A stretch of 44,352 nt of DNA. Origin: Chloroflexota bacterium. Lineage in GTDB: Bacteria > Chloroflexota > UBA11872 > VXOZ01. Below the pieces are notes generated by a model. That model was not told the DNA's origin, did no database searches, and worked only from the letters and a program-made list of their open reading frames with translations. The DNA lies in contig JAPOQA010000019.1 in the NCBI GenBank assembly GCA_026710945.1, forward strand, positions 1-44,352, in the 5' to 3' direction. Shown piece by piece: positions 7,375 through 30,866 of this stretch (position 1 is its first letter; each line of letters opens with the position of its first letter). A program made the position numbers and the translations under genes.

Positions 7375-8817
7375 CTACTCTTGGTTTGCGTAGTACTCGT
7401 CCAGCACAACCTGTGATTCCTTGCTTGCCGTCTGCATGGCTTCCTCGACGGTGACCTCTTGGGCCCACGCGCGGTTCATATTGCCACGGAACGCGCGCCA
7501 CCACTCCAGCCACACACCATTGACTTGCCAGTACTGGCCGCGGCCTTCTCTGAGGGGCGCCATGTACGCTTCCACCTCACGCGGCGGTCGACCGCTCTTC
7601 TCGAGCAGGCGAGCGTCATCCCAGGTGTTGGTATTGGCCGGCAGACCGTCACGGAGAATAGTGAAGACTCCCACTTGAACTTCATGGTCGATCAAGGGGA
7701 ATTTCATCACTTCCCAGGCCTCATCGGGCACTTCAGTGCTGCCCCACATTTCCACCACACGTCCACCGCCAGGTACCTTGTTGTTTGCCGGGCCATGGAT
7801 GTACTCCACGGCGACAATGGGAAGACTCTCTGGATCCGGTGAGCCCCAGGAACCGGACTGGCCCAGGCCGAGATTCATCATGGCCGACCGCTGCCAGGCA
7901 AAGGGTCCGTGGTACGATGTTCCTTCAGGTATGGAAGCATTGAATTCCGCGACGGCGTCGGGATCCGGTGCAACACGATTCTTGAATTCCAAGTCCCACA
8001 GGAATTGTATAACCGCAATGAATTCCGGTTCGTGCGCGCGGGAACGACGGTAGTCATCGGAGAGGAAATTCGTGCCGTTCTGAAGCAGCATCCCCAGAAT
8101 GTCGAAAGTGGCCTGCTTATTGTTGAACCAACCCCACACCCTGGGATCTTCGTTTTCGCCGCGGCCCGTAATTTCTGAAGCGATCTCCAGCAGCGTGCCG
8201 CCGTCATTCGGGTTCCAGTCGATGCCTTCGGCAGGCAAGCGGTTGATGCCGTAGCGATCGAAATGGTCGGTATTGTAGGCAAGCGCTGCGCCACCGACAC
8301 CCATGGAGACGCCGTAGACATCCTGCTTCTCGTCCGTAAAGAATTCAGGACCGCGGACCCCCTGGAGCTGAGCAGAATCCCGCTGGACATACTCGGTGAT
8401 CGCCCGAGCAAACCCTGCGTCACGGTTGCGGGCGAAGAAGACACCGTCGTTGTGGAATACGTCCGGAGCGTCACCGGCGGCCAACTGCGTATTGAGCTGG
8501 CTCATGGTGTCGCGGTAGGTGTCGCCTACCCAATCAAGCTCGATGTTGTCGTAGTTTTCGTAGAATCGCGCCACAACGAGATTCTCGTAGAATGGCTCAA
8601 CGCGAGTAAGGTCGTTGGAGATCCACCTAACCGAAACCGTGACCTTCTCTGCTGGTGCCGGTTCTTCGGCCTTGGTCTCCTCTGCAGCCTGCTCCGGCAT
8701 TTCGCCGGAATCGGCCGGCATGGCGGTGCCGCACGCTGCCAGCGCGATCGCGCCAAGAACGCCGCCACTGCCTGCGAGCATGCGCCGACGCGTAATACGA
8801 CTTCGTGCAAATGACAT
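7375..8817 (-). CDS. ABC transporter solute-binding lipoprotein (family 1), paralog A
   Basis: A 480-residue extracytoplasmic solute-binding protein of the sugar/polyol type (SBP_bac_1 fold). The N-terminus carries a twin-arginine motif (TRRRMLAG) and a lipobox ending LAAC, so it is probably Tat-exported and lipid-anchored; an acidic Glu/Ala/Pro linker follows. The ATG at 8817 is chosen over one 30 nt upstream because GAGAGGG sits 7 nt before it and it places the RR motif close to the N-terminus. It shares many blocks with the gene at 10716-12152, for example NGTNFLSDDYRRSR and SGRPPRE. No permease or ATPase gene is nearby, so its transporter partners lie elsewhere. The ligand is unknown. Confidence 0.9.
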   Translation of the reverse strand: MSFARSRITRRRMLAGSGGVLGAIALAACGTAMPADSGEMPEQAAEETKAEEPAPAEKVTVSVRWISNDLTRVEPFYENLVVARFYENYDNIELDWVGDTYRDTMSQLNTQLAAGDAPDVFHNDGVFFARNRDAGFARAITEYVQRDSAQLQGVRGPEFFTDEKQDVYGVSMGVGGAALAYNTDHFDRYGINRLPAEGIDWNPNDGGTLLEIASEITGRGENEDPRVWGWFNNKQATFDILGMLLQNGTNFLSDDYRRSRAHEPEFIAVIQFLWDLEFKNRVAPDPDAVAEFNASIPEGTSYHGPFAWQRSAMMNLGLGQSGSWGSPDPESLPIVAVEYIHGPANNKVPGGGRVVEMWGSTEVPDEAWEVMKFPLIDHEVQVGVFTILRDGLPANTNTWDDARLLEKSGRPPREVEAYMAPLREGRGQYWQVNGVWLEWWRAFRGNMNRAWAQEVTVEEAMQTASKESQVVLDEYYANQE

Positions 8818-8983
8818 TTCTTTCCCTCTCTTAAACTTTGGTTTCAATCAGTCGGATCGCCAGAGCGGATATTGGGCACATGGCCACCCGCCATGGACAC
8901 AATCCTGCCAATATCTCTTGTGGAACCCCCCTTTCGAAACAAACAGAGTTGGCGCTCTGCAGAACGCTGATTCTTATACCGAT

Positions 8984-9011
8984 AATGTACTATTCAATAC
9001 CTTGTCGTCAA
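8984..9011 (-). promoter_or_regulatory. Probable promoter for solute-binding protein A
   Basis: On the minus strand TTGACG (9011-9006), a 16-nt spacer and TACATT (8989-8984) form a plausible sigma70-type promoter with a leader of about 160 nt. It is back to back with the subtilase promoter, the -35 boxes being about 30 bp apart. Confidence 0.4.
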
Positions 9012-9041
9012 GTAGAAAGAAGGATTCCCACCATAAAGGGA

Positions 9042-9070
9042 TTGACAAGGCTATTGAAGAAAGTTATAGT
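9042..9070 (+). promoter_or_regulatory. Sigma70 promoter of the subtilase-like gene
   Basis: A perfect TTGACA (9042-9047), a 17-nt spacer and TATAGT (9065-9070) predict a start near 9077. That lies after a possible ATG at 9073, which supports the ATG at 9154 as the real start and gives a leader of about 77 nt. Confidence 0.8.
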
Positions 9071-9153: not shown

Positions 9154-10557
9154 ATGGTGCCAGTTAATGACCCACTGTTTGCACAGCAATGGGGATTGCA
9201 GCTCATGAGGGCCCCAGACGCCTGGGAAACAACGCGCGGCAGCCCGGACGTGGTGGTGGCTGTCATCGAGAAAGGCATTGACGTCGGGCATCCCGACCTG
9301 GAGGGCCAGATTCTGCCGGGATGGGACTTGTGGGAGGATGACGAAAGCCTCGACGACACCTCGCGACCGCGCAAACACAAGGACTCTACCGATCACGGCA
9401 CCCACATTTGCGGCATTATTGCCGCGCGCGCTGACAACGGTATCGGCATTGCCGGGGTCGCGCCGGAGTGCCGTATTCTCCCCGTGCGGGTCAATACTTA
9501 CCATGATGGCGAGCTCGCGCGCGGGATCCGATTTGCCGTGGACAACGGCGCGCGGGTCATCAATCTGAGCGACGTGGGCTACATGTACACTACCAAGCAC
9601 GGCCTGCCCACGATCTACAGCGCCTGGACTCCGCCGCATTCGGAGGAACTGCTGGAGGCCTGCCGGTATGCCCAGCAGCACAATGTGCTTATAGTCAATG
9701 CTACCGGCGGCAATCAGGCCCACAATGTCGCTAAGTATCCCGCGCTCTGCCCGGGTGTAGTCAATGTGGCTTCCGCGGACAAGAGCGGCCGCATGGCAGA
9801 CTTTAGCGACTATGGCGACCTCACGGAGGTCGCGGCGCCGTCCGGCTGGCGTGACTACGACCTTGCGAATGATCCCTCGCGGCGCATTCTGCCGCTGGCG
9901 GAAGAATGCGTTATGGCAGCCGCGCTGGGTGCTCATCCCCAAGCGGAATACGGCGTTCTTAGTACGATTTCCGGTGAGCACGGCGGCTACGTAGAGTGGT
10001 CGGGCGGCTGCATGGCAATAGGACATGTCTCCGGCCTCGCGGGGCTCGTGTGGTCGCGACATCCCGGCCTTACGGCCGAGCAGGTCAGGATGGTAATACG
10101 CAATACCGCAAAGCAGCCGGCCGGTGGCAGCGGCTGGAATCCGTTTATGGGCCACGGCATTATCGATGCCCATGCGGCTGTATCAGTCGACCGCGTGGAG
10201 TGTGACCTGGAAATTGCAGCGGTGGAGGTTGCTGAGTTAAATCGAGAGATCGGTCGTGTACAGGTAACTGTGGCGAACAGAGGGGTGATTGACGCACACG
10301 ACGTGGCACTGATGGTCTTTGATGGGCCGATTGACGAGGGTGGCGGCATGCAACTGGGACATGCACTAGTGCCGACAGTAGTCGGACGCGAGGAAGCGGT
10401 GTGTGAGGTGCCCTTCCGAATACCGGAAGGTAAGGACAGCCTGGTGGTCGTCTGCGATCCTCGGGGCCAACTCTCCGAGCGGCAGCGGCAAGAGGGTAGG
10501 CTCTGCCTGCAGGCGGATGTACGATTGGCGGCAATGGCACAGAAAGTGCCGATTTAG
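9154..10557 (+). CDS. Subtilisin-like (S8 fold) protein with Glu/His/Cys in place of Asp/His/Ser
   Basis: A 467-residue subtilase-fold protein. It begins directly at the mature-domain start (NDPLFAQQWGL), so no signal peptide or propeptide is visible. The Asp motif reads VAVIEKGID, placing Glu39 at the catalytic Asp. The His motif STDHGTHICG is intact (H81), and the oxyanion Asn is present as NATGGN (N187). The Ser motif reads SGGCMAIGHVSG instead of SGTSMAxPHVxG, putting Cys286 at the nucleophile. Residues from about 350 to 467 form a beta-rich CARDB-like domain. AAGGA lies 8 nt before the ATG. It could be a thiol-type protease or a catalytically dead binding protein; the fold is secure, the activity is not. 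Confidence 0.88.
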   Translation: MVPVNDPLFAQQWGLQLMRAPDAWETTRGSPDVVVAVIEKGIDVGHPDLEGQILPGWDLWEDDESLDDTSRPRKHKDSTDHGTHICGIIAARADNGIGIAGVAPECRILPVRVNTYHDGELARGIRFAVDNGARVINLSDVGYMYTTKHGLPTIYSAWTPPHSEELLEACRYAQQHNVLIVNATGGNQAHNVAKYPALCPGVVNVASADKSGRMADFSDYGDLTEVAAPSGWRDYDLANDPSRRILPLAEECVMAAALGAHPQAEYGVLSTISGEHGGYVEWSGGCMAIGHVSGLAGLVWSRHPGLTAEQVRMVIRNTAKQPAGGSGWNPFMGHGIIDAHAAVSVDRVECDLEIAAVEVAELNREIGRVQVTVANRGVIDAHDVALMVFDGPIDEGGGMQLGHALVPTVVGREEAVCEVPFRIPEGKDSLVVVCDPRGQLSERQRQEGRLCLQADVRLAAMAQKVPI

Positions 10558-10631: not shown

Positions 10632-10670
10632 CATACGCGCCGCTTCTCATTGCGAGAAGCGGCGCGTATG
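10632..10670. terminator. Long hairpin between convergent genes, probable bidirectional terminator
   Basis: A perfect 17-bp stem (10632-10648 with 10654-10670) closes a 5-nt loop between the subtilase stop at 10557 and the solute-binding protein stop at 10716. It lacks a strong T-run on either side. Confidence 0.65.
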
Positions 10671-10715: not shown

Positions 10716-12152
10716 CTAGCCGTAATACTCGTCCAGCGCCGCTTGCGCCTCCTTGCTGGCTTGTTGCATCGCTTCCTCTACCGTGGCTTCACCGGCCCAG
10801 ATCGCGCCCTGACCGGTGCGGTAAGCGCCGATCCAGGCGCTCCAGACGCCGTTCACCTGCCAGTAGTAGCCCTTGCCCTCGCGCAGCGTGGCCATGTAGG
10901 CCTCGATTTCACGCGGCGGTCGGCCAGACTTCACATAGAGCCGCTCGTCGTCCCAGAAATTCGTATTGGGCGGCAGACCGGACTTGAGTATGGTGAAGGT
11001 CGCGATGTTCACCTCGTGGTCTGTCAGGAAGAAGCGCATGAGGTCCCAGGCTTCATCGGGCTGTTGCGAGCTGCCCCAATGCTCCATGACCCGGCCTCCG
11101 CTTGGCACCTTGTCGTTCTGGGGACCGCTCAGGAACTTCACGGCCACCACCGGCAAGCTCTCCGGATCGGGACCGCCCCAACGGCCGGACTGACCCATGA
11201 GCAGGTTCATCATTGCCGTCCGTTGGAACGCGAACGGCGCGTGATAGGTCTGCCCTTCTGGTATCGCCTCCAGCAGCAGCGCGACGTGCTCGGGATCTGG
11301 GGATACCTGCCACTTGAATTCCAGGTTGTGCAGGAATTCCACAACTTCCATGAACTCCGGTTCATGGATGCGCGAGCGACGGTAGTCGTCGCTGAGGAAA
11401 TTTGTGCCGTTCTGCACGAGCAGGCTCAGCACGTCGCCGGTGATTTGCTTGTTGTTGAAGAAGCCCCAGACCGGGTCCGCCTCGGTGCTGCCGCGCTGGG
11501 TGAGCTCTTGCGCTATTTCTAAGAACTCACCGCCATCGGTCGGATTCCAATTGATTCCGCCTTCAGGCAGGCGGTTGACGCCGAACTTATCGAAGTGGGC
11601 GGTGTTGTAGGCCGTGGCGACGCCGCCGATGCTGCTGGAGATACCCCATGTGCTGCCGTCGGGGTCGCGGAAAAATTCCGGGCCGATCACGCCTTGCAGT
11701 GCCCCGGCGTCGCGCTGCAAGAAGGGCGCGAGGTCGTTGATGTACCCGGAGTCGCGGAAGAGCGCGTAGCGAACTCCGTCACTGTGGAAAACGTCCGGCG
11801 CTTCGTTGGCCGCCAACTGGGTCGCGAGCTTGGCGTGGTGTTCTCTGGCGGGCGCGCCTTCCCACGCCACCTTGATGTTGGGATGCGCCGCTTCGAAGCT
11901 GGCGACAAGCAGATCGCCGTAGAAGGGCTCGATCACTGAGGCATCGTTGGAAATCCAACCGGCGCGCACCGTTACCGTCTCCATCACAGGTGCTTCTTCA
12001 GCCTGCTTGGCCTCCTCCTCAGGCTCAGACTCTTCGGCAGGCATCTGCGTTGCCGTTCCTTGCGCGCACGCGGCGATTGCCAAGACGCCTAATGAACCGC
12101 CGATGCCGGCGAGGACGCTTCTCCGTGTGAGATGACGATTGTGAATTGCCAT
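10716..12152 (-). CDS. ABC transporter solute-binding lipoprotein (family 1), paralog B
   Basis: A 478-residue paralog of the protein at 7375-8817. It has the same layout: a twin-arginine stretch LTRRSVLAG, a lipobox ending AIAAC near residue 29, an acidic linker, then the SBP_bac_1 fold. Shared blocks include NGTNFLSDDYRRSR, DPESLPVVAVK, SGRPPRE and YYWQVNGVW near the C-terminus, indicating duplication. AAAGGA lies 8 nt before the ATG. No permease genes are adjacent. The two paralogs bracket the subtilase-like gene, which may therefore share their regulation or substrate context, though it is on the opposite strand. Ligand unknown; the family suggests a carbohydrate or polyol. Confidence 0.9.
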   Translation of the reverse strand: MAIHNRHLTRRSVLAGIGGSLGVLAIAACAQGTATQMPAEESEPEEEAKQAEEAPVMETVTVRAGWISNDASVIEPFYGDLLVASFEAAHPNIKVAWEGAPAREHHAKLATQLAANEAPDVFHSDGVRYALFRDSGYINDLAPFLQRDAGALQGVIGPEFFRDPDGSTWGISSSIGGVATAYNTAHFDKFGVNRLPEGGINWNPTDGGEFLEIAQELTQRGSTEADPVWGFFNNKQITGDVLSLLVQNGTNFLSDDYRRSRIHEPEFMEVVEFLHNLEFKWQVSPDPEHVALLLEAIPEGQTYHAPFAFQRTAMMNLLMGQSGRWGGPDPESLPVVAVKFLSGPQNDKVPSGGRVMEHWGSSQQPDEAWDLMRFFLTDHEVNIATFTILKSGLPPNTNFWDDERLYVKSGRPPREIEAYMATLREGKGYYWQVNGVWSAWIGAYRTGQGAIWAGEATVEEAMQQASKEAQAALDEYYG

Positions 12153-28502: not shown

Positions 28503-30866
28503 ATGACGAACTTTAGCGCGCACACGGTACTTTCGACGGAGCTTGATGGCCGTGAGTGCCACACACCCCACGCCGTGCGCAGCGGTAACACAGTGTGGGC
28601 TGTATGGCAGGGGTACCAGCAAGACAAAGAGCACATTTACGCACGAGCTTCACATAGTGGTGAGCTGACTCCCCTTGAAACGGTTACCCCAAAGGAAGGT
28701 AGGAATCACTCGCCCTACATTGGACTAGTGCAGGACGTGCCGACGAGCGTTTGGATTTCCCAGGATCTTTGGGAAACCTATGCCGTTTACGGGTCTACAC
28801 GTTCTATTTCGGGGTGGGAAACACCACAAAAGCTGGAAAGTGAAGGTTTTGTCGTCTCCTTGCACGCAGATTCTGCCGCAGGACGCATGGCCGCGGTGTG
28901 GTGTGAGGCCGCAACGCCAGGAGCATATAAGGTTCGTTTCGCCGCCAACACGGGTAGCGGCTGGTCGGATCCCATAGACATAACTACTGCCGCCGGTTGG
29001 GTGCAGCGGCCGGAAGTCGCTGTTACCAACGACGGTTACTGGGTTGCCTGGGATGCCTATATAGACGGAAAATTCGGAATCTATTGTGTTTTCGTTGAGC
29101 AAGATGGATCAATTGGCGCGCGGGAGGTCGTAACCGACCGGGCTGCTGAATCGGAAATGGTAACGGCGGAAGCTTGGCAGCTTGTGCCATCCCTCACGAT
29201 AGACAATGACGACAACCCTTGGATCACGTGGCTCTGCAGGCAGGAGGTTGTAAGCGATGGGAATGTGCTCGACCAGTGGCCTGTGGCGAGAGTGGCGCGG
29301 CGTGCAGACGGTCAGTGGCAGCTTGTAGAAGATGCCAACGGATCGCCGGACCTCGGAGTCTTAGCCTGGGGCATGCTTGAATGGCAGGGCTTGGGCGTAT
29401 GGGGGTATCTCGGTAGACGACGTAAGCCATTGGTTGTTGCAAGCCCGGATGGTGGCGTCTGGTTGCTCTGGGAGCGGAAAGAACTGCCAAACGGTAGTAC
29501 CACCACGACAGGGGGCGTGCTCTGTGGACGCTATATTGATGCCACCAAGGGCCAATCTGCTCCCGATGTTCAGGAAACGCGGTCTATTGCAGTTGGGCCT
29601 CGATACTATACACCGGTTGCCAACGAGGCTGTTGATGGGCGCAACGAACTATGGGTAACTGCGCGTGTGGCCCCTGAGATATCTGTGGAAGACGTTTGCC
29701 TGGTCGCTCTTACTCTTGGTGATGCACCTCGCTTCCTCGACGAAGGGCGGTGGTTCGGATGGAGTCCGGCCTCACCGGGTGGGCCGCGAACCGATACCCG
29801 GCCTGGCGGGGGAATCCAAATCAGCAGCGAGAATGCTCGAGCAGGTACAAGGGAACCGGAACTCACCCTCTTTTGGGCAGACTTGCATGTCCACTCGACT
29901 CATTCCGCCGATGCGGAGGGGTATGTTGACGAACTGATAGCTTATGCGCGCGATGTAGCTCAGTTGGACTGTGTGGCGTTCTCGGATAACGACAAGCACC
30001 TCCTCAGTCTTACGGCATCGGAATACGATTTGGACTATCACTTTGCGCTTCACTTCAGGCACTTAAGTGACCTCCTGGTGCTGCCGGCGTTCGAATGGTC
30101 GCAGATGAGTCGTGCTTCCGGCTCTAGGACTTCGAATCACCGCACGGTGATAGCCGGAAGAGAGCAACTGCCGCTCTTGCGCTATACCGAGGTAGAAGGG
30201 GAACCGCTTGCGGCACTCGCCGCGCATGCTGAACGGTACGGCGCGATCCTGCACCCACATCACGAGCATTGGGAGTTCTTGTCAGACTCGTGGACCGAAA
30301 CGAATATGGAGGTCTGCTCGGGCTGGCGCGTGCACATGCTCGATCCGGCGTACCGGGAGAAGATTCACCAAGTGCTGAAGAGCGGGCGCAAGTTGGGGTT
30401 CATTGGCTGCAGCGACGGTCATCGTCGTACGGCAGGGACTGGCGGCGGTCTGACCGGCATCTATGCTGAAGACCTGAGTCGTACGGCAATACTCGATGCC
30501 TTGCGGAAGCATCGGTGTTTTGCGACCGACGGTTCCCGCATTGGCATTCAGCTTTGGGTTAACGGCGTCTTCATGGGAGGCGAAGGCAGAACTCAGGACG
30601 CGCCGGAAATCCAGTGGAATGTACAGCTTACGGAATTGCCCGCAACCATCACGCTGGTGCGCGACGGCGAGGCGATCAGGTCGTGGGAGGCAACCGAACA
30701 ACAGGCTTCCGGCCGGCATACGGACGAAGAGGCGGCACCTGGCGAGCACTTCTACTATCTCAATGTAGAACAGTCCATGGGCTGGCGGAGCCATATCTCC
30801 AATGTTGCGCCCGCTTGGGGTCCGAGAGCGTGGTCAAGCCCCGTCTGGGTGGAATTCAACCCGTAG
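28503..30866 (+). CDS. Large propeller-like / PHP-domain protein (DUF3604-like)
   Basis: A 787-residue protein with no signal peptide. Residues 1 to about 430 contain repeated beta-strand motifs with Trp and Asp (WAVWQG, TSVWISQD, MAAVWCE, WVAWDAY, WITWLCR, WLLWERK), suggesting a sialidase/YWTD-like beta-propeller. From about 455 a PHP metal-dependent hydrolase domain begins with WADLHVHSTHSADAEG, then CVAFSDND, HPHHEHWEF near 582 and GCSDGH near 635, all candidate metal ligands. The last 120 residues form a beta-rich tail. DUF3604 proteins share the PHP-plus-beta arrangement. Substrate unknown; a phosphoester or other hydrolase is the family expectation. Confidence 0.8.
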   Translation: MTNFSAHTVLSTELDGRECHTPHAVRSGNTVWAVWQGYQQDKEHIYARASHSGELTPLETVTPKEGRNHSPYIGLVQDVPTSVWISQDLWETYAVYGSTRSISGWETPQKLESEGFVVSLHADSAAGRMAAVWCEAATPGAYKVRFAANTGSGWSDPIDITTAAGWVQRPEVAVTNDGYWVAWDAYIDGKFGIYCVFVEQDGSIGAREVVTDRAAESEMVTAEAWQLVPSLTIDNDDNPWITWLCRQEVVSDGNVLDQWPVARVARRADGQWQLVEDANGSPDLGVLAWGMLEWQGLGVWGYLGRRRKPLVVASPDGGVWLLWERKELPNGSTTTTGGVLCGRYIDATKGQSAPDVQETRSIAVGPRYYTPVANEAVDGRNELWVTARVAPEISVEDVCLVALTLGDAPRFLDEGRWFGWSPASPGGPRTDTRPGGGIQISSENARAGTREPELTLFWADLHVHSTHSADAEGYVDELIAYARDVAQLDCVAFSDNDKHLLSLTASEYDLDYHFALHFRHLSDLLVLPAFEWSQMSRASGSRTSNHRTVIAGREQLPLLRYTEVEGEPLAALAAHAERYGAILHPHHEHWEFLSDSWTETNMEVCSGWRVHMLDPAYREKIHQVLKSGRKLGFIGCSDGHRRTAGTGGGLTGIYAEDLSRTAILDALRKHRCFATDGSRIGIQLWVNGVFMGGEGRTQDAPEIQWNVQLTELPATITLVRDGEAIRSWEATEQQASGRHTDEEAAPGEHFYYLNVEQSMGWRSHISNVAPAWGPRAWSSPVWVEFNP

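What the first reader, a model, noticed from the sequence alone, without database searches (positions are those of the whole stretch)
9154..10557. Subtilase with a Glu/His/Cys catalytic set and no propeptide
Seen: the Asp motif reads VIEKGID (Glu39), the His motif is intact (H81), the oxyanion Asn is kept (N187), and the Ser motif reads SGGCMAIGHVSG (Cys286). Codons are unambiguous (GAG, TGC). The frame is long and intact with a near-consensus promoter, arguing against decay. Either it is a natural thiol-subtilase or a pseudoprotease retained for binding; the CARDB-like tail fits a binding role.
Basis: partly seen in the sequence, partly recalled or inferred. Interest (0 to 1): 0.7.

Follow-up and report, generated by a model that had tools for sequence, protein, structure and literature searches.

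The report
Natural cysteine-nucleophile subtilases (paralogue pair)
A Chloroflexota genus, probably of sponge symbionts, carries two related proteins built like the protease subtilisin in which the catalytic serine has become a cysteine and the neighbouring proline a glycine or alanine, the same pair of changes chemists made to turn subtilisin into a peptide-joining enzyme; whether the natural proteins are enzymes or only binders is untested.

Summary
The finding is real, and it extends beyond one gene. The ORF at 9154-10557 is a subtilisin-fold protein (Pfam S8, 3.7e-44) with Glu39/His81/Cys286, no signal peptide or propeptide. All three congeners that carry the orthologue (86-97% identical) keep Glu, His and Cys, with dN/dS about 0.06-0.15. 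The genus also has a divergent paralogue (33% identical) with Asp/His/Cys; the two form one clade (support 99/96 with the trait columns removed), so Ser->Cys happened once and Asp->Glu came later in this copy. The window's own genome has no ordinary Ser subtilase. Both paralogues also changed Thr220->Gly and Pro225->Gly or Ala. Ser221Cys plus Pro225Ala (or Gly) is the combination that makes engineered 'subtiligase'. In 59 D/H/S relatives the acid and nucleophile never vary. A Cys-version motif occurs nowhere else in 400 Chloroflexota genomes. Caveats: the 'kept' oxyanion Asn is doubtful (a one-residue shift puts Gly186 at the invariant Asn), the tail has no CARDB match, and the two paralogues' active sites are no more alike than the rest. 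I favour a weak, thiol-dependent acyl-transfer enzyme (0.45) narrowly over a pseudoprotease (0.40). Activity is untested.

The parts
9154..10557 (+). Cys-nucleophile subtilase homologue, 467 aa, Glu/His/Cys set, called EHC here
9268..9270 (+). Glu39 codon (GAG) at the position of catalytic Asp32 of subtilisin BPN'
   Evidence: Asp in 59/59 D/H/S relatives and in the 5 paralogues
9394..9396 (+). His81 codon at the position of catalytic His64
9571..9648 (+). approximate extent of an insertion after the Ser125-Leu-Gly region (about residues 140-165), shared with the paralogue
   Evidence: alignments
9709..9714 (+). Gly186-Asn187: oxyanion-hole position, register uncertain by one residue
10006..10023 (+). 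nucleophile elbow Gly285-Cys286-Met-Ala-Ile-Gly290 (Thr220Gly, Ser221Cys, Pro225Gly in BPN' numbering)
10186..10554 (+). C-terminal beta-rich domain, residues 345-467, no Pfam match
9042..9070 (+). sigma-70-type promoter TTGACA-17-TATAGT, largely conserved in the orthologues
8982..9011 (-). divergent promoter-like site for the solute-binding-protein gene, within a conserved block
10632..10670 (.). 17-bp perfect hairpin between convergent genes, probable terminator
7375..8847 (-). flanking solute-binding lipoprotein (SBP_bac_1), divergent neighbour, syntenic in all four genomes
10716..12152 (-). second solute-binding lipoprotein, paralogue of the first, convergent neighbour

Best explanation
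The gene encodes a probably cytosolic, constitutively mature subtilisin-fold protein whose nucleophile is Cys286; it is one member of a genus-restricted paralogue pair. Shown: E/H/C and D/H/C are conserved in the two copies, the copies share one ancestor after Ser->Cys, the Pro225 position is Gly or Ala in them, and both genes are under purifying selection. Inferred: His81 activates Cys286; the small residue at position 290 gives the larger sulfur room, as in engineered subtiligase; the acyl-enzyme is a thioester, which prefers amine or thiol acceptors to water. It would then work as a slow, selective thiol-dependent acyl-transfer or processing enzyme (a natural counterpart of thiol-subtilisin/subtiligase), not as a general degradative protease. 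That would fit the missing propeptide and tolerate Glu in place of Asp, because a Cys-His pair depends less on the third residue (established knowledge of papain-type enzymes).
For: Glu, His, Cys kept in all 4 orthologues with dN/dS 0.06-0.15. The paralogue keeps Asp, His, Cys in 5 of 5 genomes although about half of its other near-invariant active-site residues changed. Single clade 99/96 with columns 39, 186, 187, 285, 286, 290 removed; 98 in the quick tree. The Pro225 equivalent is P in 54/59 D/H/S relatives, and Gly or Ala in all 9 Cys proteins. P225A restores thiol-subtilisin activity (PMC7921005), with glycine the only other tolerated residue in one screen (PMC9126251). Active-site segments vary less than the rest among EHC orthologues (5/72 vs 42/263, Fisher p = 0.056).
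Against: No activity data. The oxyanion Asn may be replaced by Gly186 (Asp in the paralogue), and Thr220, which contacts Asn155 in subtilases (PMC11593635), is Gly in both; both changes should weaken transition-state stabilisation. Between the paralogues, active-site segments are no better conserved than the rest (0.32 vs 0.35; ordinary pairs 0.56 vs 0.34). Segments of the paralogue's active site vary as much as the rest (11/71 vs 24/212). No substrate or partner gene was found. The model is too weak around 186-193 (pLDDT < 50) to test geometry.
Confidence: 0.45

Rival explanations
1. Pseudoprotease: catalysis has been lost and the subtilisin fold is kept as a binding or signalling scaffold (compare CspC/CspA of C. 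difficile germination). The Cys, His and acid are leftovers or structural.
For: Several catalytic features changed together: Asp->Glu, Ser->Cys, Thr220->Gly, possible loss of the oxyanion Asn. Paralogue active sites are not preferentially conserved. No propeptide, extra C-terminal domain. CspC and CspA are subtilisin pseudoproteases with two catalytic residues replaced (PMC6636752).
Against: Cys, His and an acid remain invariant in both copies over long branches (0.58 and 1.9 changes per site). Pro225 changed to precisely the residues that accommodate a thiol. EHC active-site segments tend to be more constrained than the rest (p = 0.056).
Confidence: 0.4
2. Redox- or acylation-sensing adaptor: Cys286 is kept as a reactive thiol (oxidised, nitrosylated or acylated) that switches binding of the protein, with no catalytic turnover.
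For: An invariant Cys next to an invariant His at a helix N-terminus, predicted cytosolic location. Cys221 in an engineered enzyme structure was oxidised to sulfenic acid (PMC7921005).
Against: No partner, regulator or thiol-stress gene is linked to it, and nothing tests it directly.
Confidence: 0.1
3. Decay, sequencing error or assembly artefact: an ordinary D/H/S subtilase with mistaken or random codons.
Against: Four independent genomes carry the same residues in open frames, dN/dS is far below 1, and a paralogue has the same Cys.
Confidence: 0.01

Closest known systems
Thermitase / subtilisin (MEROPS S8A, PF00082)
   Same: Same fold and domain order, His motif, substrate-cleft framework; thermitase is the best sequence match in the PDB (1.4e-34) and has target TM 0.83-0.84.
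   Different: Cys for Ser, Glu for Asp, Gly for Thr220 and Pro225, doubtful oxyanion Asn, no propeptide or signal peptide, insertion after the Ser125 region, extra C-terminal domain.
Engineered thiol-subtilisin, subtiligase and peptiligase (S221C, with P225A)
   Same: Cys nucleophile together with a small residue at position 225 (Gly here, Ala in the paralogue).
   Different: Natural and inherited; also Thr220Gly, Asp32Glu in this copy, and possibly a changed oxyanion hole. Ligase activity not tested.
CspA/CspC pseudoproteases of Clostridioides difficile
   Same: Subtilisin fold kept by selection with catalytic residues changed.
   Different: CspC has Gly and Thr at Ser and His (PMC6636752); here nucleophile-capable Cys and His remain. 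CspC keeps a prodomain.
Mycosin MycP (TIGR03921)
   Same: Best NCBIfam match (7.6e-63, 212.7 bits); in MycP1 the protease activity is dispensable for secretion (PMC5082899).
   Different: Below the curated cut-off (278.75), mycosins are serine proteases, no type VII secretion genes among the neighbours examined here.

Membership tests
Peptidase family S8 (subtilases, PF00082) | Subtilisin fold by profile and structure | tested here: met
   PF00082 3.7e-44; Foldseek to thermitase TMt 0.83-0.84
Peptidase family S8 (subtilases, PF00082) | Catalytic Asp in the Asp-Ser/Thr-Gly motif | tested here: not met
   Glu39-Lys-Gly; Asp in 59/59 D/H/S relatives
Peptidase family S8 (subtilases, PF00082) | Catalytic His in His-Gly-Thr-His | tested here: met
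   H81
Peptidase family S8 (subtilases, PF00082) | Catalytic Ser in Gly-Thr-Ser-Met-Ala | tested here: not met
   Gly-Gly-Cys286-Met-Ala; Ser in 59/59. A homologue by descent, not a serine peptidase
Peptidase family S8 (subtilases, PF00082) | Oxyanion-hole Asn155 | tested here: inconclusive
   Column holds Gly186, Asn is the next residue; spacing to Tyr-Pro-Ala would allow Asn187; model pLDDT < 50 there
Thiol-subtilisin / subtiligase type | Cys at position 221 | tested here: met
   Cys286 in 4/4 orthologues, Cys270 in 5/5 paralogues
Thiol-subtilisin / subtiligase type | Ala or Gly at position 225 | tested here: met
   Gly290; Ala in the paralogue; Pro in 54/59 relatives
Thiol-subtilisin / subtiligase type | Peptide ester aminolysis (ligase activity) | not testable with these tools
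   needs biochemistry
Subtilisin-type pseudoprotease | Loss of catalytic activity | not testable with these tools
   sequence changes are ambiguous
Mycosin (TIGR03921) | Score above the curated cut-off | tested here: not met
   212.7 against 278.75 bits
CARDB domain (C-terminal tail) | Profile match | tested here: not met
   no Pfam match at E <= 10

The most novel reading that the evidence does not exclude
A naturally evolved subtiligase: in this genus the subtilisin fold has become a thiol acyltransferase that joins, cyclises or trims specific peptides or proteins in the cytosol, using a Glu-His-Cys (and in the paralogue Asp-His-Cys) set and reaching by natural selection the Ser221Cys plus Pro225Gly/Ala solution found by engineers.
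Probability: 0.2. Interest if true: 0.85.

Novelty: new variant of a known kind. Interest (0 to 1): 0.62.

Why it matters
A 2024 structural survey describes only two subtilisin-superfamily triads, both with Ser (PMC11593635). An inherited Cys version with the compensating Pro225 change would show that the Ser-to-Cys switch, well known in other protease folds, can also be reached by subtilisins, and in what order: Cys first, Glu later. It would also give natural starting points for peptide ligases and a direct test of what the third catalytic residue does in a thiol enzyme of this fold. If it proves inactive, it is a clean case of a pseudoprotease that keeps a nucleophile-like Cys.

Tried and rejected
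Pseudogene or sequencing error: rejected. Independent origin of Cys in the two copies: not favoured. Phage or plasmid origin: best matches there are subtilases of about 25-33% identity. Other natural Cys subtilases: exact motif searches found none in 400 Chloroflexota genomes outside the genus (the Ser form of the motif gave 11 hits in 41 genomes) and none in IMG/VR. A Cys-bearing peptide run against plasmids gave best-ranked matches of which two were read, both Ser. Defence role: only a weak PADLOC 'subtilase' hit. Mycosin: below cut-off. CARDB tail: no match. RNA families in the region: none. Literature searches found no natural thiol-subtilase, but only open-access papers were searched.

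Full report
What was claimed and what is there. The frame 9154-10557 on the + strand is open and encodes 467 residues. Pfam places residues 32-335 in Peptidase_S8 at 3.7e-44; thermitase is the closest solved structure by sequence (1.4e-34), and an AlphaFold model of modest quality (pLDDT 62, pTM 0.74) superposes on thermitase with target-normalised TM 0.83-0.84.

Conservation. The window lies in a 3.5-Mb genome (G000) of a Chloroflexota genus held as six genomes. Three congeners have the orthologue at 97, 90 and 86% identity, and all read E/H/C. Nei-Gojobori dN/dS is 0.06-0.09 for the diverged pairs (dS about 0.7-1.2) and 0.15 for the closest pair. The gene sits between the same two solute-binding-protein genes and next to the same M14 peptidase and glutamine-synthetase-like genes in all four genomes. 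G002 has the paralogue but no orthologue of this gene, and G005, only 69% complete, has neither. Two record titles (Plut_88905, RHO3_bin_22) suggest sponge metagenomes; that habitat is my inference.

A second Cys subtilase. The only other S8 protein of G000, present in five of the six genomes, is 33% identical to the window protein and reads Asp47/His98/Cys270. A tree of 52 catalytic domains with the trait columns removed joins the two groups as one clade (99 bootstrap / 96 SH-aLRT; 98 in an earlier quick tree of 58 rows). By parsimony Ser->Cys came before the duplication and Asp->Glu after it. G004 alone has a third S8 match, an ordinary D/H/S type with an in-frame stop.

The nucleophile elbow. 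Canonical Gly-Thr220-Ser221-Met-Ala-x-Pro225 is Gly-Gly-Cys-Met-Ala-Ile-Gly here and Gly-Gly-Cys-Met-Ala-Ser-Ala in the paralogue. In 59 D/H/S relatives position 220 is Thr in 58 and 225 is Pro in 54, Ala in 4, Ser in 1. In engineered subtilisin, S221C alone is poorly active, and P225A restores activity by giving the sulfur room, yielding subtiligase (PMC7921005); a screen of subtiligase variants tolerated only Gly besides Ala at 225 (PMC9126251), although a later library in a different background accepted more residues (PMC7921005). The nine Cys proteins are one clade, so this is one evolutionary event, not nine; the Fisher value for position 225 computed must not be read as independent evidence. 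Pro->Gly needs two codon changes, with Ala as a natural intermediate.

What speaks against a working enzyme. The alignment column that is Asn in 59/59 relatives (oxyanion Asn155) holds Gly186 here and Asp in the paralogue, with Asn in the next position in both. The spacing from Asn187 to Tyr-Pro-Ala equals the spacing from the Asn in several relatives, so a one-residue bulge that keeps Asn187 in place is possible; the model is below pLDDT 50 at 186-193 and cannot decide. Thr220, lost in both, contacts Asn155 in subtilases (PMC11593635). PC2 shows that an Asp at the oxyanion position can be active, while other changes there impair activity (PMC4182778). Between the paralogues the active-site segments are no more alike (0.32) than the rest (0.35), whereas ordinary relatives show 0.56 against 0.34. 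Within the window's orthologues active-site segments do vary less (5/72 vs 42/263, p = 0.056), but not within the paralogue group (11/71 vs 24/212, p = 0.40).

Gene structure and location. A TTGACA-17-TATAGT promoter at 9042-9070 is largely conserved in the orthologues, opposite a divergent promoter-like site for the solute-binding-protein gene; a perfect 17-bp hairpin lies between the convergent genes downstream. The gene therefore looks monocistronic. With the acid at residue 39 (47 in the paralogue) there is no propeptide or signal peptide, unlike most D/H/S relatives; cytosolic location is an inference. The tail (345-467) is predicted beta-rich and resembles the paralogue's tail only weakly (hhalign probability 19); it matches no Pfam family.

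How unusual it is. A degenerate DNA pattern for Gly-x-Cys-Met-[Ala/Ser] with its downstream helix matched nine sites in 400 Chloroflexota genomes, all of them these two genes; the Ser version matched 11 sites in 41 genomes of the class; IMG/VR gave none. These are exact-pattern searches of a sample, so rarity is shown for this phylum and not for all life. Literature searches returned engineered thiol-subtilisins only, within an open-access library.

Verdict. A conserved, genus-restricted pair of subtilisin-fold proteins with Cys at the nucleophile position is established. Thiol-dependent acyl transfer or limited processing is the reading I favour (0.45), narrowly ahead of a pseudoprotease (0.40). 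By catalytic definition it should not be filed as a serine peptidase; by descent it belongs to the subtilase fold.

Noticed in passing
G000:C13:50813-52147 (L104:9814-11151), and L014, L027, L029, L032: Second Cys subtilase homologue (Asp/His/Cys, Pro225->Ala) beside an M24 peptidase and a polysaccharide-deacetylase gene, near three DUF3604 genes; neighbourhood conserved in congeners.
   Followed up: yes
L147 (G004:C63:51429-52478): Ordinary D/H/S-type subtilase gene next to an AAA ATPase gene, interrupted by an in-frame stop codon in this genome; absent from the other congeners.
   Followed up: partly
window 7375-8847 and 10716-12152: Two paralogous solute-binding lipoproteins (about 57-59% identical) flank the subtilase gene in all four genomes; G002, which lacks the subtilase gene, has only one match, 58% identical to the second of them.
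   Followed up: partly
window 8980-9020 and orthologues: Strongly conserved non-coding block (ATACCGATA.TGTACTAT) in the divergent intergenic region, overlapping the minus-strand promoter-like site; may be an operator for both genes.
   Followed up: no
window 28503-30866: A DUF3604 protein in the window; three more lie next to the paralogue on another contig.
   Followed up: no
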